A stretch of 59,328 nt of DNA from an uncultured Candidatus Saccharibacteria bacterium (GTDB taxonomy: Bacteria > Patescibacteriota > Saccharimonadia > Saccharimonadales > Saccharimonadaceae): positions 1 through 59,328 of the forward strand of contig CAMVRN010000007.1 in NCBI GenBank assembly GCA_947169915.1, written 5' to 3'. Below are positions 1,217 through 40,069 of this stretch, in pieces. Each line of letters begins with the position of its first letter. The stretch's first letter is position 1. Both the position numbers and the translations under genes were made by a program. The notes under the pieces were generated by a model, which saw only the letters and a list, made by a program, of their open reading frames with translations, did no database searches and was not told the origin of the DNA.

Positions 1217-1292
1217 GGGGGCATAGCTCAGTGGTTAGAGCAGTCGGCTCATAACCGATTGGTCCCTGGTTCAAGCCCAGGTGCCCCCACCA
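1217..1292 (+). tRNA. tRNA with CAT anticodon, probably tRNA-Ile2 (lysidine type)
   Basis: A full cloverleaf is present with an encoded CCA: acceptor GGGGGCA/TGCCCCC and anticodon loop CTCATAA. The paired 1-72 position excludes an initiator. The body TAGCTCAGTGGTTAGAGCA and the TTGGTC variable region match the bacterial Ile(CAU) tRNA better than elongator Met. The window has two other CAT tRNAs that fit initiator and elongator Met, and it contains tilS. The Ile2 assignment is an inference. Confidence 0.85.
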
Positions 1293-1506: not shown

Positions 1507-4500
1507 TTGTGTCGGTTATGGCATAAAAGAAAAAATAAAAAGGTGTTAAGTTTAAAATCATCCTACCGTTTTAGAAAGACCCTCCTCTGTGTAACAACAG
1601 TGGGCTTTTGGGTTCTTGCCCTTCTCGTTCTGTCGATTTATCCGACCTTCGTTGCGAACTCCACTTTTGCCGACGATGATTATCCTGTAACTCCAACTCT
1701 TTCGATTTCCTCAAGTGGCGTTCTTAATTTCGATTTACACCCAGGCGAATTTAACAGTGGTACTCAAGAAGTAACCGTCAACACCTCCAACTACACTGGC
1801 TATACTGTCACTATTTCCGCCGAAGGCTCAACCGACCTCGTCAATCTAGAAAACGCTCAAAAAGTCATCCCGACTCTCACTCTCGACGCTGGGCAAGAAA
1901 GCAAAACTTCTGAAGAGTTCAGCTCCACTTCCTACGGCATCAGTACAAACGGCATCGACTTCAAACCAGCTATCAGTGGCGGAATCGTTAAAACGAGTGA
2001 ACTTTCAGGCTCCGATACCTTCGACCTCACTTTCGGCGCCAAAGTCTATACCGACCTTCCTTCCGGTGACTATCGAAAGACTTTCACTTTAACCGCCATC
2101 GCAAACGACGCTCTTTATGCGATTTACTACGAGAAAAACACCGAAGACGACGTAACAAACATGCCGGACCCGAACCCACAACCAGGTTCAACCTCCGGCT
2201 CTTCCGTCACGCTCTCAACCGCCGTTCCTGTTCGCTCTCGCTACGAGTTCCTAGGTTGGGATACTAATAGCGCAGCTCTAACTCCGACATATACCATCGG
2301 CGATTCTCTCACACTCGATAAGAAGACCGATAACGAGACCACGCTCTACGCTATTTGGGAACATACAAGCGAAACCTTTAACCTCGAATACAACTCAAAC
2401 GGCGGTACTGGTAACATCGGCACCGACTCCAACACCAATCGCGACGGCGAGTACACCTTCACGATTACCGACGAGGCTCCAACCAGAACTCACTACCAAC
2501 TTCTCGGTTGGTCAACCATCCCAACCGCTGACCGCCCAGAGTATCACGCTGGCGACACCATCTCTCGCTTCACTCCAGGCACTACCACTCTCTACGCCAT
2601 CTGGGGTTACGGCAACGACACTCTTCAAGGCTGGAGAAGCTGTTCTTCTCTCGGAACCGGAGCTTCCGTTTCTCTCCTAGATGCTCGCGACGGAAAGTCC
2701 TACACCGTCAAAAAACTTGCCGACGGCAACTGCTGGATGACCGACAACCTTCGCCTTGATTTCTCCGACATCACAGAAGAGATTTCTTATCGAAATACCA
2801 ACAACCCAGAACTATCTTTCGTTGACGAAATGAACGACAGTCCAGCTTCCTCAAACGACTTCACCGAGGGAACAGATAACGAACTTCGTTACAATTCCTC
2901 GAATCTCGGCGACGATACTCTCGACTCCGAAGGACACACTTACGAAGAATACGGCGTATATTATAACTGGCACACCGCAACCGCAGGGAACGGTACAACC
3001 GACACTGTCAACAGCGAAGCTGGTGGCGACCTCTGTCCTAAAGGCTGGCATCTCCCGTCCGGCACCGCAGAAGGTGAATACTACAACTTGAACTACGCCA
3101 TCAACGGTTCTAATCGCACCGACGCCGTTGCCTCCGCAAATCTCCGCGACGCCACCAACAACTTTACAAATTCTGGCCGCGCTTCAGACAATCAAATCAC
3201 GACTCGAGGCACAAATGGCTACTATTGGACTTCAACTGCCCAAACCGTTGCTCAAGCCCACACTTTAAGCTTCGGCGCAACCAGTGCTAACCCGGGCACC
3301 GACAGCGCCAAGAAGACCGAAGGTCGTACTGTTCGTTGTCTCTCTGGCACCCAATTCACTCTTCGTTATGACGAAAAAGGTGGTTCTGTGACCATCGGGA
3401 AAGAAATTGTCATGTCCGAAGAAGATGAACACGATTTCGTTATAAGCGAAACTCCGTCCAGAAAAACTGGCTACTACTTCCTCGGTTGGTCAACCAACCC
3501 AGACGCAACTGTTGCCGACTACCAACCAGGCGACACTATCACCGTCACCTCTTCCATCACCGTTCTCTACGCCGTCTGGGAAGAAGCAACTATCATTCCT
3601 GCCTCTGAGTTCCAATGCTCCTCGCTCGCAAACGTTGGTGATACGGCTTTCGTCCGCGATGTCCGTGACAACTCAATCTATACCGTCAACAAACTCGCCG
3701 ACGAGCAGTGCTGGATGACTGACAACCTTCGTCTCGACTTCTCGAACCTTGTCCAACCTATCTCCGCCTCAAACACCAACAACCCAACCGCTGACTTTAT
3801 AGCGGCAGCTAACCTCAGCCCAGTTTCTTCGTCAAGCTTCAAATCTTCGAACCGCCAATCTTTGAATTACAACACAGACAACATCGGAAGCACCACCATT
3901 GCCTCAACAGGTCACACCTATGACCATTTCGGTGTCTACTACAACTGGTACACCGCCACTGCCGGCAACGGCACAACCTCCATCATGAGTGGCGAAGCTG
4001 GTGGCGATATCTGTCCTAAGGGCTGGCACCTTCCATCTGGTGGTAGCGATGGCGACTTTATCAACTTGAACTACGCTATAAACGGCAACCTGACTAACGC
4101 CACAGCTTCCGCAAACCTTCGTAAGGCACCTAACAACTTCCTCTATTCTGGACGTTACAGTGGCACAAGTGCAGTAGGTCTTGATACTGGTGGACAATTC
4201 TGGGCTTCGACCGCATCTGCCAGCCTTAATGCTAATGGACTCACCATTGCTCCAAATAGTGTTTCTGCAGGCACTAACTCCATTGATAAATACACCGGAC
4301 GCGCTCTTCGTTGTATCCAAGGTACCGAGTATTCTCTCCGCTATGATTCTCGAGGAGGTAACTTCACCCCAGATTATCAAGCAGTTTCTTCCGAGAGTGG
4401 TTCCGCCGAATTTACAATCAACAATCGTGCCGTCCGCCACTCTGGCTACTACTTCCTCGGTTGGTCAACCAACCCAGACGCAACTGTTGCCGACTACCAA

Positions 4501-5310
4501 CCAGGCGACACTATCACCGTCACCTCTTCCATCACCGTTCTCTACGCCGTCTGGGAAGAAGCAACTATCATTCCTGCCTCTGAGTTCCAATGCTCCTCGC
4601 TCGCAAACGTTGGTGATACGGCTTTCGTCCGCGATGTCCGTGACAACTCAATCTATACCGTCAACAAACTCGCCGACGAGCAGTGCTGGATGACTGACAA
4701 CCTTCGTCTCGACTTCTCGAACCTTGTCCAACCTATCTCCGCCTCAAACACCAACAACCCAACCGCTGATTTTATAGCGGCAGCTCCAAACGCAGTATCT
4801 TCTAGCTCTTGGTGCACGAACAATCAAGACTCGACCTGCACGGATAAGATTCTCTTTAACTCTTCAAACATCGGAGTATCGACCTTCGATAGCGACGGCC
4901 ATACTTACGATGAATATGGTGTCTACTACAACTGGTACACCGCCACTGCCGGCAACGGCACAACCTCCATCATGAGTGGCGAAGCTGGTGGCGATATCTG
5001 TCCTAAGGGCTGGCGCCTTCCATACGGCGACGGCGATGGTGACTTTAATACTCTCATCTCTGCTTTGCCTGGTGCATCCATTTCAACCAGTCTCCGCACC
5101 GAGCCAAACAACTTCGTTCACTCCGGCTACTTCTACAATTCGTCTAGTAGCGAGCGTAATACTGTCGGCTATTATTGGACGCAAACCGCCGACCAAAACG
5201 CGAGCGAACCTAAAGCTATTAATCTTTACCTCTCCACAAGCAACGCAACCGCAAATGTCAGCCAAGTAAGATACCTCGGTTTTAATATTCGCTGTATTGC
5301 CGACACATAG
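1507..5310 (+). CDS. Large secreted modular protein: WxL-like N-domain, four InlB-type repeats, three FISUMP domains
   Basis: 1267 residues. A basic stretch and hydrophobic helix (residues about 22-55, ending NSTFA) form a long signal peptide or N-terminal anchor. Residues about 58-200 are a beta domain ending LPSGDYRKTFTLTAIAN, like the C-terminal strand of the small secreted proteins nearby. InlB/Listeria-Bacteroides-type repeats (GWDTN...LYAIWE) lie at about 201-287, 289-367, 618-696 and 941-1020. Three Fib_succ_major-type domains (about 375-615, 698-938, 1022-1267) each show WMTDNLRLDF, YGVYYNWHTATAGNGT or a variant, CPKGWHLP or CPKGWRLP, and a final RCL/RCI. No C-terminal anchor is visible. 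A host-adhesion role is inferred. The start is uncertain: TTG 1507 or GTG 1543, neither with a clear Shine-Dalgarno site. It is probably cotranscribed with the gene at 5390. Confidence 0.85.
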   Translation: MCRLWHKRKNKKVLSLKSSYRFRKTLLCVTTVGFWVLALLVLSIYPTFVANSTFADDDYPVTPTLSISSSGVLNFDLHPGEFNSGTQEVTVNTSNYTGYTVTISAEGSTDLVNLENAQKVIPTLTLDAGQESKTSEEFSSTSYGISTNGIDFKPAISGGIVKTSELSGSDTFDLTFGAKVYTDLPSGDYRKTFTLTAIANDALYAIYYEKNTEDDVTNMPDPNPQPGSTSGSSVTLSTAVPVRSRYEFLGWDTNSAALTPTYTIGDSLTLDKKTDNETTLYAIWEHTSETFNLEYNSNGGTGNIGTDSNTNRDGEYTFTITDEAPTRTHYQLLGWSTIPTADRPEYHAGDTISRFTPGTTTLYAIWGYGNDTLQGWRSCSSLGTGASVSLLDARDGKSYTVKKLADGNCWMTDNLRLDFSDITEEISYRNTNNPELSFVDEMNDSPASSNDFTEGTDNELRYNSSNLGDDTLDSEGHTYEEYGVYYNWHTATAGNGTTDTVNSEAGGDLCPKGWHLPSGTAEGEYYNLNYAINGSNRTDAVASANLRDATNNFTNSGRASDNQITTRGTNGYYWTSTAQTVAQAHTLSFGATSANPGTDSAKKTEGRTVRCLSGTQFTLRYDEKGGSVTIGKEIVMSEEDEHDFVISETPSRKTGYYFLGWSTNPDATVADYQPGDTITVTSSITVLYAVWEEATIIPASEFQCSSLANVGDTAFVRDVRDNSIYTVNKLADEQCWMTDNLRLDFSNLVQPISASNTNNPTADFIAAANLSPVSSSSFKSSNRQSLNYNTDNIGSTTIASTGHTYDHFGVYYNWYTATAGNGTTSIMSGEAGGDICPKGWHLPSGGSDGDFINLNYAINGNLTNATASANLRKAPNNFLYSGRYSGTSAVGLDTGGQFWASTASASLNANGLTIAPNSVSAGTNSIDKYTGRALRCIQGTEYSLRYDSRGGNFTPDYQAVSSESGSAEFTINNRAVRHSGYYFLGWSTNPDATVADYQPGDTITVTSSITVLYAVWEEATIIPASEFQCSSLANVGDTAFVRDVRDNSIYTVNKLADEQCWMTDNLRLDFSNLVQPISASNTNNPTADFIAAAPNAVSSSSWCTNNQDSTCTDKILFNSSNIGVSTFDSDGHTYDEYGVYYNWYTATAGNGTTSIMSGEAGGDICPKGWRLPYGDGDGDFNTLISALPGASISTSLRTEPNNFVHSGYFYNSSSSERNTVGYYWTQTADQNASEPKAINLYLSTSNATANVSQVRYLGFNIRCIADT
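3467..3810 (+). repeat. Direct repeat copy A within the surface-protein gene
   Basis: 344 bases repeated at 4442-4785 (offset 975) with a single difference that I can see, C at 3795 versus T at 4770. It covers the end of InlB repeat 3 and the start of FISUMP domain 2. Confidence 0.9.
4442..4785 (+). repeat. Direct repeat copy B within the surface-protein gene
   Basis: Second copy of 3467-3810. A further identical block of about 97 bases follows, 3931-4027 matching 4918-5014 at offset 987. The sequence between the blocks differs strongly. Confidence 0.9.
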
Positions 5311-5389: not shown

Positions 5390-5941
5390 ATGAAGAAACA
5401 ATCGAAAGTATTAATCGCACTAGGGCTCACCGCTAGCCTCGCGCTCTTACCAATCGGTGCTTTTGCCACGGATGACAATCTCGGTACCGACCAAGTCACT
5501 GTCACCGTAAGGACCGGCTGCTCGCTCTTTGCCGCTGATGGCGAAAGCGACTTTTCCGCTCTCTCAAACGTCTATTCTGGCTCCGTCGCTCCAGGCGAAA
5601 CCCTCGAAATCACCGCTGGTGGTAGCGGAAAGATAAACGCTTTTAACGTGAAGTGCAACGAAGACGGCACATACGCCATCTCCGCTCGAGCGACTGCCTT
5701 GACTCACACCAATGGAGAATACACTATTCCAGTCAATAGCTGGGGCCTAAAATACAACGGCAATTCCGAATACACGATGTTTAACGGTAACTCTCAAACC
5801 CTCGTCTCGAAATCTGGCACCGCTACTGGTTCAAACGAACTCTTCACAATTAATGGCTACAAGGTCAACACCACCGCTTCGACCAAATCCGGCGCCTACA
5901 CTGGAACCGTAACCTATACTCTAGTCTTCGACGGCGAATAA
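5390..5941 (+). CDS. Small secreted two-cysteine beta protein (WxL-like family)
   Basis: 183 residues with a clear signal peptide (MKKQSKVLIALGLTASLALL, cleavage near AFA-TDD). The mature part has one cysteine in VRTGCSLF and one in FNVKCNEDGTYAISA, and ends SGAYTGTVTYTLVFDGE. The same frame (C-S/T-I/L, then C-N-x3-G-F/Y, final Y-x-G-x-V-x-Y-x-L-V) recurs in the genes at 7115, 7973 and 11272. The last strand resembles the end of Firmicute WxL domains with Y in place of W. There is no membrane anchor, so it is probably secreted or held at the surface by the DUF916-like protein encoded next. AGGAG lies upstream of the ATG behind an A-rich leader. No promoter is obvious in the 79-base gap after the previous gene. 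No enzyme activity is suggested. Confidence 0.75.
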   Translation: MKKQSKVLIALGLTASLALLPIGAFATDDNLGTDQVTVTVRTGCSLFAADGESDFSALSNVYSGSVAPGETLEITAGGSGKINAFNVKCNEDGTYAISARATALTHTNGEYTIPVNSWGLKYNGNSEYTMFNGNSQTLVSKSGTATGSNELFTINGYKVNTTASTKSGAYTGTVTYTLVFDGE

Positions 5942-5995
5942 TCTTAACATTTCTTACCTCGACTCCCGCACTTTGTGCTACAATACTATTATTGT

Positions 5996-6934
5996 ATGAG
6001 GAGTCGAGGTTTGAAATTCAGTAGCCTAAAGAGAATCGCACTAATTTCTGTCCTGTTTATCGCAGGCCTTTTTATTTCTTTATTTTTCGAAGAGCCTTGT
6101 TTTGCTGGCACCAACTTCACAGTCTCCCCAATGTATCAAAAATACTCTTTCGCCGCCGGCGAGACGAAATCCTTCAGCTTCCGCGTCTACAATCCAATCG
6201 AATCCTCTTCTAACCTCGAGTTCGAACTCGAAGCTGAGCCATTTTTTAAAGACGATGACAACAATGTTCAGTTCTCCGCAAAGGAGGACTATTCTCTAAT
6301 CATCAACTGGGTCACCATCCCCGAAGCATCTGGCACCCTCAAACCAGGCGAGGGAAGAGACCTGAGCTTCTCTATTTCCGTCCCCTCAACCGCCCCTGCT
6401 GGCGGTCAATACGTCGCTATCTTAGTCAAAACTAAGGGCGACACGGTCGGCATTGTCAATCAAAACTTTTCCATGGCTCACCTCTTATATGCCGATGTCG
6501 CTGGTCAAACTCGCCACTCTGGCCTACTCGAGAACCCTGGCATGAAACCTCTTATCTTCTCTGGTAACATTTCTGCTTCCATTACCGCGAAGAACTCTGG
6601 TAATGTCCATGCCTACGCCTATCAAAGGTTAACCGTCACGAATCTCTTTGGCGAGAAGGTCTATTCTTCGCCAGATTCCGATACTGACAAACTCATCATG
6701 CCAGAGACCTCCCGTCAAATCTCCCTTGAATGGAGCGGAACCCCTTCAATCGGTCTCTTCCGCGCCGCCTATACCGTTGAATTTGAAGACGAGGTGACCA
6801 CCGTCGAGAAGATTATTCTTGTCTGCCCACTCTGGCTCTTGACCTTAGTCTTCATACTCCTTGCATCTGCCGTTATCGTTATCGTCAAAAAACTCAAAAA
6901 TCGCCACAAAACGATGGACCTGGCGGAAGTGTAA
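5996..6934 (+). CDS. Membrane-anchored DUF916/DUF3324-like surface protein
   Basis: 312 residues from ATG 5996, which has the first basic residues of a signal peptide; a start at 5975 would add seven residues with no benefit. A signal peptide (to about FAG-TNF) is followed by two Ig-like halves. The first has VSPMYQKYSFAAGETKSF and VPSTAPAGGQYVAILV. The second has LLYADVAGQTRHSG, NSGNVHAYAY, LFGEKVYSS and MPETSR. A single C-terminal transmembrane helix begins with CPLWLL and ends in a basic tail. This layout parallels the WxL-interacting DUF916/DUF3324 proteins of Firmicutes. Three more copies lie at 9344, 11981 and 19441. It sits directly after a small secreted protein, the pairing seen in WxL operons. 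A binding partnership is inferred. A TACAAT box lies 11 bases before the ATG. Confidence 0.75.
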   Translation: MRSRGLKFSSLKRIALISVLFIAGLFISLFFEEPCFAGTNFTVSPMYQKYSFAAGETKSFSFRVYNPIESSSNLEFELEAEPFFKDDDNNVQFSAKEDYSLIINWVTIPEASGTLKPGEGRDLSFSISVPSTAPAGGQYVAILVKTKGDTVGIVNQNFSMAHLLYADVAGQTRHSGLLENPGMKPLIFSGNISASITAKNSGNVHAYAYQRLTVTNLFGEKVYSSPDSDTDKLIMPETSRQISLEWSGTPSIGLFRAAYTVEFEDEVTTVEKIILVCPLWLLTLVFILLASAVIVIVKKLKNRHKTMDLAEV

Positions 6935-7030
6935 AAATTACAACATTTATTTTAGCAAAAAAATACTCTGTAAATTAGTTAAGAATGTTGTATAAAAAAC
7001 AACAAAATCACTAAATTTTCCTTAAAACTC

Positions 7031-7059
7031 TTGACGAGTTTTTTAAGGTATTTTAAAAT
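7031..7059 (+). promoter_or_regulatory. Promoter of secreted-protein gene 7115
   Basis: TTGACG, a 17-base spacer and TAAAAT (7054-7059). The leader to the ATG is about 50 bases and rich in A, containing ACCAAAATAAAAA as in the leader of the gene at 5390. GGAG lies before the start. The wider gap 6935-7114 otherwise holds AT-rich sequence with two copies of an AATGTTGTA motif. Confidence 0.7.
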
Positions 7060-7114
7060 GAGCTTAAGGTTTAACAAAAACCAAAATAAAAACAAAATGG
7101 AGTTATAAAAAAAC

Positions 7115-7744
7115 ATGCGAAAATCAACTAAGCTTATTGCTGGCTTGAGTGTTGTTGCCGGTCTTGGTGTTGCACTCGCCCCTCTTTCAACTTTTGCGGT
7201 TGTCCCAACCCGTACGGATAACCTATACATCAATAACACCGAAGCGTGTACGATTAACGGCGTCGCTCTCGATTCTTCTCAGGAAGCTTCTTCGTTCACC
7301 AACGTAGAAAACAATTACGACTGGGCTTATTCTCCAGGTCAGGAACACGATTTTACTCGCCGTACCTCTGGAACTGGCGGTTCTGAAAATGAAGGCGTTT
7401 TCCAAATTGTTTGTAACTACACAACTGGTTACAAAATCGTTGCGAACGCCACCAACCCAACCGACGGTAGCCACGATATTGAAGCAGGTACTACTGGTGA
7501 TGAATACTGGGCAGCCAGAATTGTCTCTAAGACTGGCAACATCGTCCCAGCCACTGGAATTACCGTTGGCACCAACTTCGCTATCACCAGCGCTAACCAA
7601 CCAGTTCTCGTGAACACCGGCTCCTCTGCCGCCGACCCAGGCGATTCCTTCAGCATGACCTATGCCGCGAAAACCTCTGAAAGCACCCCAGCTGGTACCT
7701 ACGAAGGTTCAGTAGCCTACACCCTCGTGAAGGGCGCTAACTAA
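7115..7744 (+). CDS. Small secreted two-cysteine beta protein (paralogue 2)
   Basis: 209 residues. The signal peptide, MRKSTKLIAGLSVVAGLGVA to STFA, is almost the same as that of the next gene. The mature part has NTEACTINGV and FQIVCNYTTGYKIVANATNP, the paired-cysteine signature of this local family, and ends TPAGTYEGSVAYTLVKGAN. It has no membrane anchor. It is closest to the gene at 7973, so a local duplication is likely, although the DNA has diverged. It has its own promoter at 7031-7059 and a strong terminator at 7762-7785, so it is transcribed alone. A structural surface subunit or ligand displayed through the DUF916-like anchors is a reasonable guess; no catalytic motif is seen. Confidence 0.75.
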   Translation: MRKSTKLIAGLSVVAGLGVALAPLSTFAVVPTRTDNLYINNTEACTINGVALDSSQEASSFTNVENNYDWAYSPGQEHDFTRRTSGTGGSENEGVFQIVCNYTTGYKIVANATNPTDGSHDIEAGTTGDEYWAARIVSKTGNIVPATGITVGTNFAITSANQPVLVNTGSSAADPGDSFSMTYAAKTSESTPAGTYEGSVAYTLVKGAN

Positions 7745-7761
7745 AAGGTTATTAACTCCAG

Positions 7762-7785
7762 AGCCCCCGAAAGGGGGCTTTTTTT
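7762..7785 (+). terminator. Rho-independent terminator
   Basis: AGCCCCC-GAAA-GGGGGCT with a T run, directly after the secreted-protein gene. Confidence 0.95.
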
Positions 7786-7894
7786 GAATACATTGAAAAG
7801 GTGAATATGTTTTTTTTACAACACATTTTCCAAAATCCGTATCTTAAATTAGCCTAAAAATGCTGGTTTTGGTAACAATTTTTGAAAAATACTA

Positions 7895-7923
7895 TTGCCA
7901 TAAGCACAAAAGTGTTATATTCT
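7895..7923 (+). promoter_or_regulatory. Probable promoter of secreted-protein gene 7973
   Basis: TTGCCA (7895-7900), 17 bases, TATTCT (7918-7923). The leader then holds ATACTAAAATAAAAAGGAAAAC before the ATG, like the other A-rich surface leaders. The -10 choice is uncertain; TATATT with a shorter spacer is possible. Confidence 0.5.
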
Positions 7924-7972
7924 AAAACTACAAAAAGGTCATAAATACTAAAATAAAAAGGAAAACATATTT

Positions 7973-8608
7973 ATGCGCAAATCGTCAAAACTAATCGCAG
8001 GACTTGGCGTTGTAGCCGGTCTTGGCGTCGCTCTTGCTCCTCTCGGAGTCTTCGCAGCTACACCGACCCGTCTAGATAACTTGCATATCACCAGCACCGA
8101 GGCTTGTTCTATCAACGGTGTCGAAATCAGTGCCGCTAACGCAGGAGACACTGCAACTGCATCAACCTTTACTGACCCAGTTAACCACTACGACTGGGCA
8201 TACGCTCCAGGCACCGAGTACGATTTTACTCGTCGTACAGAGGGTACAGGCACAGCTACAGAGAACACCTTCACCATCGTCTGTAACTACGCAGACGGTT
8301 TCAAAATCGTTGCAAACGCCGTCAACCCAACAAACGCCACCTTGGAACACACCATCGCGGCAGGTACCACTGGTCCAGAATACTGGGCAGCTAAAATCCT
8401 AAGCACAAGTGGAGGCATGGACACTGACTACACAGGAAATACTCCATTTGCTATCGATACGGCCAACCAGAAGATTGTCTTCGTCGAAGGCGCAACCCAA
8501 GCTACTGGCGCTTCCTTCTCGATGGGCTATGTCGCAAAGACTGCCGCTGATACCCCAGCAGGTACCTATGAAGGCTCAGTCTCCTACACCCTCGTTAAAG
8601 GCGCTTAG
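7973..8608 (+). CDS. Small secreted two-cysteine beta protein (paralogue 3)
   Basis: 211 residues with signal peptide MRKSSKLIAGLGVVAGLGVA to VFAA. The family signature is present in full: TEACSINGVEI, then FTIVCNYADGFKIVANAVNP, and the terminal strand TPAGTYEGSVSYTLVKGA. It aligns along its whole length with the protein at 7115. Differences are concentrated in the middle loops (insert SAANAGDTATA, and the KILSTSGGMDTDYTG region), which would fit surface variation on a conserved fold. AAAAGG precedes the start at slightly long spacing. The terminator at 8635-8662 ends the unit. Function is unknown; a display partner for the DUF916-like anchors is inferred from context. Confidence 0.75.
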   Translation: MRKSSKLIAGLGVVAGLGVALAPLGVFAATPTRLDNLHITSTEACSINGVEISAANAGDTATASTFTDPVNHYDWAYAPGTEYDFTRRTEGTGTATENTFTIVCNYADGFKIVANAVNPTNATLEHTIAAGTTGPEYWAAKILSTSGGMDTDYTGNTPFAIDTANQKIVFVEGATQATGASFSMGYVAKTAADTPAGTYEGSVSYTLVKGA

Positions 8609-8634
8609 TTGACTCTCGTCTAAAAAAGACCTTA

Positions 8635-8662
8635 AAGAAGCCACGAAAAGTGGCTTCTTTTT
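8635..8662 (+). terminator. Rho-independent terminator
   Basis: AAGAAGCCAC, an A-rich loop, GTGGCTTCTT and a T tract after the secreted-protein gene. Confidence 0.95.
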
Positions 8663-8719
8663 ATGGTTCTCTTTTCATAGTTTTTATGCTAACATATATC
8701 ATATAAGCTAGGAGGAATT

Positions 8720-9313
8720 TTGAAACAGGAACAAAACACTTTGGACTCTCGCGATGAACAGGAAAACCGCGGAGTCCTCGGCAAAATCATTTTGCCCCTC
8801 ATCGTCATCATTGTCGTCATAATAATCATTCTTTTGATGAAAGGGAAGACCACGGTCACAGGTGAACATCCCGAAGGCTTTCGCACCGAATCGCTTGTCT
8901 GCGAAGCAAATGGAAAGAATTACGAAAAGGTCTATGGTGTCTCTCCGACTTCCCGCAACGTCAAGGTCAGCATGATTTTCGAGAACGTCAATTCTCTTCA
9001 ATCCATGAACTTTAAATACACTCAAGATTTCTCTACCGCCGAGCATGCCGAATCCGCCAGACAGACCACCGCTGTCACCATCGGTCTCTCTCTTGAGGAA
9101 GCAGGATACAAAACCTTCGATTTTGAAAGCAAGGTAACCACTATCGATTCCGTCGTCCATCTCGACCTCGTCGCGAAGAAACAAGAGCTTGACACTAAAT
9201 CTGCTCCGTTCTTCATGATAAAGACTTCCGACAGTAATTCTCGCGTCCCAACCACCCTGACCGACTTCCGACAAAATTACGAGTCCCAGGGCTTTAAGTG
9301 TGAAATCAAATAA
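8720..9313 (+). CDS. Hypothetical single-pass membrane protein
   Basis: 197 residues from a TTG start fixed by AGGAGG at 8710-8715. The cytoplasmic N-terminus (about 22 residues, acidic and polar) is followed by a very hydrophobic helix (VIIVVIIIILLM, about 24-42). An extracellular domain of about 150 residues has two cysteines, LVCEANGKNY near its start and FKCEIK at its end, likely to pair. It contains alternating strands and a helix; no family is recognised. It lies 30 bases upstream of the DUF916-like gene at 9344, although a TACAAT box in that gap could start a second transcript. It belongs to the surface island by position. Confidence 0.7.
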   Translation: MKQEQNTLDSRDEQENRGVLGKIILPLIVIIVVIIIILLMKGKTTVTGEHPEGFRTESLVCEANGKNYEKVYGVSPTSRNVKVSMIFENVNSLQSMNFKYTQDFSTAEHAESARQTTAVTIGLSLEEAGYKTFDFESKVTTIDSVVHLDLVAKKQELDTKSAPFFMIKTSDSNSRVPTTLTDFRQNYESQGFKCEIK

Positions 9314-9343
9314 TATATGTTACAATAAAGAAAAAGGAGGTAA

Positions 9344-10252
9344 ATGAATCTTTCTAAAACCATCAAACGAATTGCCCAGAGCATCCTGCTAGCAGTGTTC
9401 CTTCTTGTGGCTTCAATCTCTCCCGCTTACGCCAAAGAAGGCGAAGCTGGACTAACCGTCTCTCCAATGTATCAGTTTAAGGTTCTCACCCCAGGTACGG
9501 TCGAACCAGGTTCATTCACAGTCTCGAACCCCGTAAACAACACCGAGACCGCGGCCTATGAGCTCACCATCCGACCATTTTCTTATGATGATGAAGATGG
9601 CGAAGTGCTCGAAGAATTCGAAGGACACTCCGAAATAGTCAATTGGATTAACATCGAAGGAGAGACCAGCGGCACCCTCGCTCCAAACGAATATCGCGAA
9701 ATCGCATTCACCATCAATGTCCCAGAAAATGCTCCAACCGGTGGTCAATACGCCGCCATCATCGTTCGTGCAGGCACTAGCCAAGTCGGGCCAATTTCTG
9801 AGACAATCGAGATTGCCCACCTCATTTATGCCGACGTTTCCGGCGAAACCGTCCACCAAGGTGAGATTGACTCCGTCAACGTCCCATCTTTCCTCTTCTC
9901 GGGAAACATCTCTGGTAGCTCAAGCGTCCATAACGCTGGCAACACCCACTCTTATGCCACCCATATCCTGAAAGTATCTCCACTCTTTGGCGGGGAAGAG
10001 TTCTATACTAACGAAGAGGAACCACAAACCAGCCTCATTATGCCAGACGCCACGCGCTATACCAGTGTCTCTTGGAACGAGACTCCATCTATCGGCATCT
10101 TTAGAGTAGTCTACACAGTGGAATACGAAGGCAAAACCATGGAAGTCAGTAAAGTCGTTATCGTCTGCCCACTCTGGCTTCTCATTGTCATTGCCCTCAT
10201 TGTCATCCTCCTGTTCTATCGCATCTTCTTCGGCAGGAAAAAGAACAAATAA
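9344..10252 (+). CDS. Membrane-anchored DUF916/DUF3324-like surface protein (paralogue 2)
   Basis: 302 residues, with AAAAGGAGG before the ATG. A signal peptide (cleavage near AYA-KEG) leads into VSPMYQFKVLTPGTVEPGSF, an acidic loop, then VPENAPTGGQYAAIIV, LIYADVSGETVHQG, FSGNISGSSSV, NAGNTHSYAT, LFGGEEFY and MPDATR. A C-terminal helix starts CPLWLL and ends in GRKKNK. It shares nearly every marker with the proteins at 5996 and 11981. The architecture matches two Ig-like modules on a membrane stalk, as in WxL-binding partner proteins of Gram-positives; the homology needs a profile search. A strong terminator follows. Confidence 0.75.
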   Translation: MNLSKTIKRIAQSILLAVFLLVASISPAYAKEGEAGLTVSPMYQFKVLTPGTVEPGSFTVSNPVNNTETAAYELTIRPFSYDDEDGEVLEEFEGHSEIVNWINIEGETSGTLAPNEYREIAFTINVPENAPTGGQYAAIIVRAGTSQVGPISETIEIAHLIYADVSGETVHQGEIDSVNVPSFLFSGNISGSSSVHNAGNTHSYATHILKVSPLFGGEEFYTNEEEPQTSLIMPDATRYTSVSWNETPSIGIFRVVYTVEYEGKTMEVSKVVIVCPLWLLIVIALIVILLFYRIFFGRKKNK

Positions 10253-39016: not shown

Positions 39017-40069
39017 ATGGCAAACAAATCAACGGTGGAAACAGCAGATAAAAGTGATAAAGGCAGTAAGAAAGACGACGCTCGCGCACAAGCACTAAAT
39101 CTCGCTATCTCTCAAATCACCAAATCCTTTGGTGACGGTTCAATTATGAAACTTGGTGACGCAAAAAAAATTGACGTCCAGCTTATCCCATCCGGCTCAC
39201 TCTCTCTTGACCTTGCTCTAGGCGGTGGCTATCCAAAGGGTCGCATCATCGAAATCTATGGTCCTGAGTCTTCTGGAAAAACGACCCTGACTCTTCATGC
39301 AATTGCAGAAATCCAAAAACAGGGCGGAACGGCAGCATTTATCGATGCTGAGCACGCTCTCGACCCAGCTTACGCAAAACGCATTGGCGTAGACACGGCA
39401 AATCTTCTTATCTCCCAGCCAGATAACGGGGAACAAGCACTCGAAATCTGCGAAACGCTTGTTCGCTCTGGTGCAGTTGACCTTATCGTTGTTGACTCTG
39501 TCGCCGCACTCGTACCTCAAGCTGAAATTGATGGAGACATGGGCGACGCGCAGATGGGCCTTCAGGCACGCCTCATGTCCCAAGCGATGCGTAAACTCAC
39601 TGGTATCATCAGCAAGTCCAAAGCGACCGTTATTTTCATTAACCAAATCCGCATGAAAATTGGCGTGATGTTTGGTAATCCAGAAACAACGACCGGTGGC
39701 AACGCACTTAAATTCTACGCCTCCGTTCGTCTCGATATCCGACGCATTGGTCAAATCAAAGAAGGCGACAATATCACTGGCAACCGTACAAAAGTCAAAG
39801 TCGTTAAAAATAAAATTGCCGCACCGTTCCGTACAGCAGAATTCGACATCATGTACAACGAAGGCATCTCCAAAGTTGGCGATATACTGGACTTGGCAGT
39901 CCAATACGGTATCATCGAGAAAGCAGGGGCTTTCCTAAAGTATAACGGCGAGACAATCGGCCAAGGACGTGAAGCCGTAAAGAAACTCTTCCGTGAAAAA
40001 CCAGAATTCATGGATGAAATCGATAAAAAAGTTCGCGCAGAAGCGGCTCGTCGCGAAAACGAAGACTAA
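39017..40069 (+). CDS. recA: Recombinase RecA
   Basis: 350 residues, standard length. Walker A is [10 protein letters not shown], followed by FIDAEHALD and Walker [11 protein letters not shown]. The L1/L2 regions include [20 protein letters not shown] and [22 protein letters not shown] short acidic/basic end follows. It forms nucleoprotein filaments for homologous recombination and the SOS response. GAGG precedes the ATG. The Nudix gene follows after 11 bases and recX after that, so this is a recA-Nudix-recX operon. No LexA box was recognised. Confidence 0.98.

What the first reader, a model, noticed from the sequence alone, without database searches (positions are those of the whole stretch)
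3467..5014. Recent module duplication in the FISUMP/InlB surface protein
344 bases are repeated 975 bases apart with one visible difference, and a further 97 bases at offset 987 are identical, while the intervening variable parts differ. This suggests recent duplication or gene conversion of conserved shells around variable cores, a route to antigenic or ligand variation.
Basis: seen in the sequence. Interest (0 to 1): 0.6.

Follow-up and report, generated by a model that had tools for sequence, protein, structure and literature searches.

The report
Patchy gene conversion in surface adhesin
Two old neighbouring repeat units of a surface protein in a tiny gut Saccharibacterium have recently had two conserved stretches copied from one to the other, while the parts in between stayed different; this is an ordinary kind of local DNA exchange, and nothing found here shows that it works as a variation switch.

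Summary
3467-3810 equals 4442-4785 with one silent mismatch at 3795, and 3931-4027 equals 4918-5014 with none. Both lie in a 1255-aa secreted protein of a Saccharibacteria genome (1543-5310, +) that carries tandem [InlB B-repeat + FISUMP] modules M1, M2 and M3. It is not a recent duplication of a module. Inside the two identical tracts, 4-fold degenerate sites match 80/80. In the rest of the same modules they match 13/38, the saturated level also seen between unrelated genes. Outside the tracts M2 is closer to M1 than to M3. The best reading is old modules with two short, recent gene-conversion tracts at the segments conserved across the whole family. It is the only case among 44 multi-module genes sampled. 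There are no silent cassettes and no reverse transcriptase in the genome, so antigenic or ligand variation is not supported. Caveat: contig ends overlap by exactly 55 bp, the mark of a k=55 short-read assembly. Interior mismatches may have been smoothed, and the phase of the variable cores was set by read pairs. Near-identity still holds at positions the assembler could not smooth (1 difference in 207). Modest interest.

The parts
1543..5310 (+). Whole gene: secreted multi-module protein, 1255 aa; N-terminal signal/TM segment, four InlB-type B-repeats (PF09479), three FISUMP domains (PF09603/TIGR02145)
   Evidence: ORF 1507-5310; GTG start at 1543 preferred; PF09603 96.2 bits, PF09479 79.3 bits; TIGR02145 153 bits
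2380..3354 (+). Module M1 (B-repeat + FISUMP), not homogenised; 60% nt identity to M2/M3 over the A segment
3355..4329 (+). Module M2 (B-repeat + FISUMP)
4330..5307 (+). Module M3 (B-repeat + FISUMP), C-terminal module
   Evidence: structure model
3467..3810 (+). Tract A, copy in M2: second half of B-repeat, linker and first part of FISUMP; 344 bp, one silent difference (3795) from its partner
4442..4785 (+). Tract A, copy in M3
3811..3930 (+). Variable core B of M2 (120 bp); family-wide poorly conserved, gap-rich
4786..4917 (+). Variable core B of M3 (132 bp); low-confidence, mostly coil in the model
3931..4027 (+). Tract C, copy in M2: conserved GVYYNWYTATAGNG..GGDICPKGW core, 97 bp
4918..5014 (+). 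Tract C, copy in M3, identical
4028..4441 (+). D segment of M2 and start of the next B-repeat (E): unique sequence, so the join M2-D to M3-A is read directly and not inferred through a repeat
5015..5307 (+). D segment of M3, diverged from D of M2 (37% aa; 4-fold sites 7/23)

Best explanation
M2 and M3 are old paralogous modules of one adhesin-like surface protein. Recently, RecA-type homologous recombination copied two stretches between them (direction unknown), about 344 bp (A) and about 97 bp (C). These are where the modules are most alike because the family is conserved there. The dissimilar cores (B) and C-terminal halves (D) could not pair and were left untouched. Shown: the near-identity, its sharp edges, saturation elsewhere, conflicting relationships of the segments, presence of RecA. 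Inferred: non-reciprocal transfer as the process, its two-event nature, and that it has no programmed function. The protein itself is most likely a cell-surface binding protein with lectin-like FISUMP heads on B-repeat spacers (inferred from domains and a predicted fold).
For: A and C match 63/63 and 17/17 at 4-fold sites between M2 and M3, while B, D and E match 3/8, 7/23 and 3/7. The background is 0.33 for other genes in the same genome and 0.34 for other within-gene module pairs. D is 50% identical in protein for M1-M2 but 37% for M2-M3; outside A and C, matches at polymorphic columns are M1-M2 106, M2-M3 86, M1-M3 77 of 353, so the tracts and the rest give different relationships. The FISUMP part of A, and C, are the conserved columns across 176 FISUMP domains (mean information 2.17 and 2.44 bits against 1.52 and 1.59 for B and D), where homologous pairing is most likely. 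RecA is encoded at 39017-40069. No other matching DNA in the genome, so the partner module is the only visible donor.
Against: Two separate tracts are needed, both between the same two modules. The direction cannot be told: similarity of A+C to other domains follows B of M3 but D of M2, which could also hint at wrong phasing of the B cores. No close strain is in the collections, so the event cannot be dated on a tree. The assembly is short-read.
Confidence: 0.7

Rival explanations
1. Recent duplication of a whole module, followed by replacement of B, D and E in one copy with diverged cassettes from other strains (allelic recombination).
For: A and C are identical at all 80 testable 4-fold sites, as expected of a fresh duplicate; within-gene modules are somewhat more alike than between-gene ones (median 36% against 29%).
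Against: Needs at least three replacements that each stop at the edges of A and C, and no donor exists in the genome. D of M2 groups with neighbouring M1 rather than looking foreign.
Confidence: 0.17
2. Assembly effect: two module copies (or two strain alleles) differing by a few percent in A and C were smoothed to identity, or B cores were joined in the wrong order, by a k=55 de Bruijn assembler.
For: Six pairs of contig ends overlap by exactly 55 bp, as in SPAdes-type output at k=55 (from general knowledge); 328 bp exceeds that k; the only mismatch lies 16 bp from the end of the tract, where bubble removal cannot act.
Against: In the 207 positions within 55 bp of a fork (ends of A, all of C) there is one difference, 0.5% (95% interval 0.01-2.7%), against 50% or more elsewhere in the modules. 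D of M2 and E are unique sequence, so the three-module order is the only walk using every piece. Thus near-identity and tandem order stand; exact identity and B phase do not have independent proof.
Confidence: 0.1
3. Programmed variation: cassette-based antigenic variation (vls/MgPar-like) or a diversity-generating retroelement acting on the lectin-like FISUMP domain.
For: FISUMP (Fib_succ_major) is a reported DGR target domain (PMC4159848), and conserved frames with variable regions are typical of cassette systems (PMC3828179; PMC2169797).
Against: No reverse transcriptase in the genome, though the same search finds one in 60 of 199 family members. B and D differences are of all types, not adenine-linked. 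No silent copies elsewhere. 4-fold sites in B and D are at the saturated background, as for old paralogues. Not seen in other genes.
Confidence: 0.03

Closest known systems
Gene conversion / concerted evolution among paralogous repeats, e.g. Borrelia vls cassettes (PMC3828179)
   Same: Conserved parts homogenised within one genome while variable regions stay different; short patchy tracts
   Different: No silent cassette array, no evidence of repeated events; a single pair of tracts inside one gene
Mycoplasma genitalium mgpC/MgPar recombination (PMC2169797)
   Same: Segmental homologous exchange in an adhesin gene of a very small genome
   Different: There a variable region is supplied by dispersed partial copies; here no other copy was found in the genome and the variable cores were not exchanged
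FISUMP (TIGR02145 / PF09603) proteins with InlB B-repeats (PF09479)
   Same: Same domains by profile and, for the B-repeat, by predicted fold (InlB B-repeat 2y5p, Z 7.0)
   Different: Tandem alternation of B-repeat and FISUMP; relatives are widespread in this genus (99 of 100 genomes)
Legionella Lcl C-terminal domain and C-type-lectin-like folds
   Same: Predicted FISUMP fold aligns over 107 residues (8q4e, Z 7.4, rmsd 2.8)
   Different: 16% sequence identity, Z below 8; a shared fold shows no ligand

Membership tests
FISUMP domain (PF09603 / TIGR02145) | Score above curated cut-off | tested here: met
   PF09603 96.2 bits (cut-off 33.9), three stretches; TIGR02145 153 bits (cut-off 41.65)
InlB B-repeat / Listeria-Bacteroides repeat (PF09479; TIGR02543) | Score above curated cut-off | tested here: met
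   PF09479 79.3 bits (cut-off 27), four stretches; the narrower TIGR02543 is below its cut-off, 16.9 against 20.95
Recent whole-module duplication | Low synonymous divergence across the entire unit | tested here: not met
   4-fold sites: A 63/63 and C 17/17, but B 3/8, D 7/23, E 3/7
Gene conversion between paralogues | Tracts of identity bounded by diverged sequence, with conflicting relationships of tract and flanks | tested here: met
   Runs of 127 and 22 polymorphic columns against a permutation maximum of 20; outside the tracts M2 is nearer M1
Gene conversion between paralogues | Non-reciprocal transfer, with unconverted ancestor known | not testable with these tools
   No close strain held: DNA matches in the genus are short and diverged
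Cassette-based antigenic variation (vls / MgPar type) | Silent homologous copies elsewhere in the genome | tested here: not met
   Whole-gene DNA search of the genome (96% complete) finds only the gene itself; the unassembled 4% is not covered
Cassette-based antigenic variation (vls / MgPar type) | Variants within a population | not testable with these tools
   No reads or conspecific strains available
Diversity-generating retroelement target | Reverse transcriptase in the genome | tested here: not met
   No PF00078 match; control positive in 60 of 199 relatives
Diversity-generating retroelement target | Differences confined to template adenines | tested here: not met
   All substitution types in B and D, e.g. 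D: CT 44, AG 34, AC 28, AT 20
C-type-lectin-like fold | Predicted fold matches solved members | tested here: inconclusive
   Lcl C-terminal domain Z 7.4, snake C-type lectins Z about 6, identity 16% or less; model mean pLDDT 75
Pam pilus system (neighbouring gene 7115-7744) | Pilin C-terminal profile NF058581 above curated cut-off | tested here: inconclusive
   E 7e-5 but 22.9 bits against a cut-off of 55; genome search rang nowhere, controls included

The most novel reading that the evidence does not exclude
The conserved A and C frames are kept identical by recurrent conversion so that they serve as crossover points for swapping the lectin-like B and D cores between modules and strains, a modular ligand-variation scheme in host-dependent Saccharibacteria without cassettes or retroelements.
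Probability: 0.06. Interest if true: 0.55.

Novelty: new member of a known kind. Interest (0 to 1): 0.22.

Why it matters
It is a clear example that intragenic gene conversion acts on tandem surface-protein modules in a reduced Saccharibacteria genome that keeps recA, and a caution that identical shells around different cores need not mean recent duplication or a variation system. If strain data showed the cores being shuffled between fixed frames, it would matter for how these host-dependent bacteria change partners.

Tried and rejected
Whole-module recent duplication: rejected on synonymous sites and conflicting segment relationships. Purifying selection as the cause of identity: rejected, since 4-fold sites are identical too, while M1 differs from M2 in A at 13 of 30 comparable 4-fold sites. 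Diversity-generating retroelement: no reverse transcriptase, no adenine bias. Silent cassettes or other donors in the genome: none. Recurrent homogenisation in the genus: within-gene 4-fold identity elsewhere equals background (0.34 against 0.33); only short tandem repeats of 63-70 bp were found in two other loci (L038, L111). Direction of transfer: similarity profiles gave no consistent answer. Independent copy of the tract in IMG/VR: none. Solved-structure search by sequence: only weak hits. No paper found on FISUMP or gene conversion in Saccharibacteria. Pam pilus: no paper held and the profile search of the genome was uninformative.

Full report
WHAT WAS CLAIMED AND WHAT IS THERE. At offset 975, 3467-3794 is identical to 4442-4769 (328 bp); position 3795 differs (C/T, synonymous); 15 further bases match to 3810. 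At offset 987, 3931-4027 is identical to 4918-5014 (97 bp). On both sides identity falls at once to 0.44-0.50. In a permutation test on the columns that vary among the three modules, the two tracts are runs of 127 and 22 matching columns; the longest run in 10,000 shuffles was 20.

THE GENE. The repeats lie in one gene, 1543 (GTG) to 5310, encoding a 1255-residue protein with an N-terminal signal-like hydrophobic segment, three FISUMP domains (PF09603, TIGR02145) and four InlB-type B-repeats (PF09479). It has three B-repeat + FISUMP modules, M1 2380-3354, M2 3355-4329, M3 4330-5307. The genome is 770 kb in 12 contigs; named relatives of the protein in other genomes are Candidatus Saccharibacteria from ruminant guts, and 99 of 100 genomes of the genus hold a relative. 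A second gene of this type in the genome is at contig C5, but no other DNA in the genome resembles this gene. An AlphaFold2 model of M3 (mean pLDDT 75) aligns with the InlB B-repeat over residues 1-79 (2y5p, Z 7.0) and with the Legionella Lcl C-terminal domain and snake C-type lectins over residues about 90-326 (Z 7.4 and about 6). These Z values are middling, so the lectin-like fold is likely but not proven, and the ligand is unknown.

WHY IT IS NOT A RECENT MODULE DUPLICATION. A fresh duplicate would be alike along its whole length. At 4-fold degenerate sites M2 and M3 match 63/63 in A and 17/17 in C but only 3/8 in B (3811-3930), 7/23 in D (4028-4329) and 3/7 in E (3355-3466). Elsewhere in this family such sites match at about 0.34 within genes, 0.33 between genes of one genome and 0.31 between genomes, that is, at saturation. 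The parts between and beside the tracts are therefore as old as any other module pair. They also disagree with the tracts about kinship: D protein identity is 50% for M1-M2, 37% for M2-M3 and 34% for M1-M3, and outside the tracts M2 shares more variable positions with M1 (106/353) than with M3 (86/353).

WHY GENE CONVERSION IS THE BEST READING. Over 176 FISUMP domains of the genus and relatives, the A and C segments are the conserved ones (2.17 and 2.44 bits per column) and B and D the variable ones (1.52 and 1.59). Homologous pairing between old paralogues would succeed first in A and C, and the 120/132-bp B cores would block extension (inference). RecA is encoded in this window at 39017-40069. 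The alternative, duplication followed by replacement of B, D and E, needs at least three foreign insertions ending exactly at the edges of A and C, with no donor in the genome. The direction of transfer could not be determined: similarity of A+C to other domains follows B of M3 but D of M2. That mixed result may be noise, or may hint that the B cores are exchanged in the assembly.

HOW FAR THE ASSEMBLY CAN BE TRUSTED. Six pairs of contig ends, including the start of this window's contig, overlap by exactly 55 bp. From general knowledge this is the mark of a SPAdes-type short-read assembly with final k=55. Such an assembler merges a 328-bp repeat into one graph edge, separates it by read pairs, and may remove small bubbles, hiding interior mismatches. 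The one mismatch seen is 16 bp from the end of the tract, where no bubble can form. Counting only positions that cannot be smoothed (55 bp at each end of A, and C) gives one difference in 207, 0.5% with a 95% interval of 0.01-2.7%. So the near-identity is real, though 'exactly identical' is not assured. The piece 4028-4441 is unique and joins M2 directly to the second A copy, so the tandem order is not an artefact of the repeat; only the order of the two B cores depends on read pairs. This paragraph is inference from the sequence, since no reads were available.

IS IT A VARIATION SYSTEM? Nothing supports it. FISUMP domains are known targets of diversity-generating retroelements (PMC4159848), so this was tested: the genome has no reverse transcriptase, although the same search finds one in 60 of 199 family members, and the B and D differences are of all types and not adenine-linked. 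There are no silent cassettes of the vls or MgPar kind (PMC3828179; PMC2169797). No second example was found in the other multi-module genes: 44 multi-module genes and 226 within-gene pairs were in the alignment, and only short tandem repeats turned up in two other loci. The event made two modules more alike, not more different.

VERDICT. A real and unusually clear patchwork, best read as sporadic gene conversion between old modules of an adhesin-like protein; ordinary in kind. Strain sequences or long reads would settle the rest.

Noticed in passing
window 5390-10252: Downstream surface-protein cluster: small secreted proteins (5390-5941; tandem paralogues 7115-7744 and 7973-8608), two proteins with signal peptide and C-terminal TM (5975-6934, 9344-10252; faint WxL-interacting/NPCBM-like hits) and 8720-9313. 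A similar set follows the FISUMP gene in G087:C8 (L098).
   Followed up: partly
window 7115-7744: Weak match to NCBIfam CPR_Pam_pilin_C (NF058581, E 7e-5, 22.9 bits against a cut-off of 55), suggesting a pilin-like subunit near the adhesin-like gene.
   Followed up: partly
window 1-59328: The window is one whole contig (C7, 59328 bp); its first 55 bases equal the last 55 of contig C8, so the neighbouring contig is known.
   Followed up: yes
L096 1-5844 (G000:C5): Second multi-module FISUMP gene of the genome, at least 1947 aa and cut by the contig start; no near-identical internal repeats.
   Followed up: partly
L010, L012, L027 (G088:C6, G048:C1, G065:C1): Some FISUMP relatives in the genus match across an in-frame stop (one TAG or TAA); could be pseudogenes, joined neighbours or assembly errors.
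   Followed up: no
window 1217-1292: tRNA-Met (anticodon CAT) just upstream of the gene.
   Followed up: no
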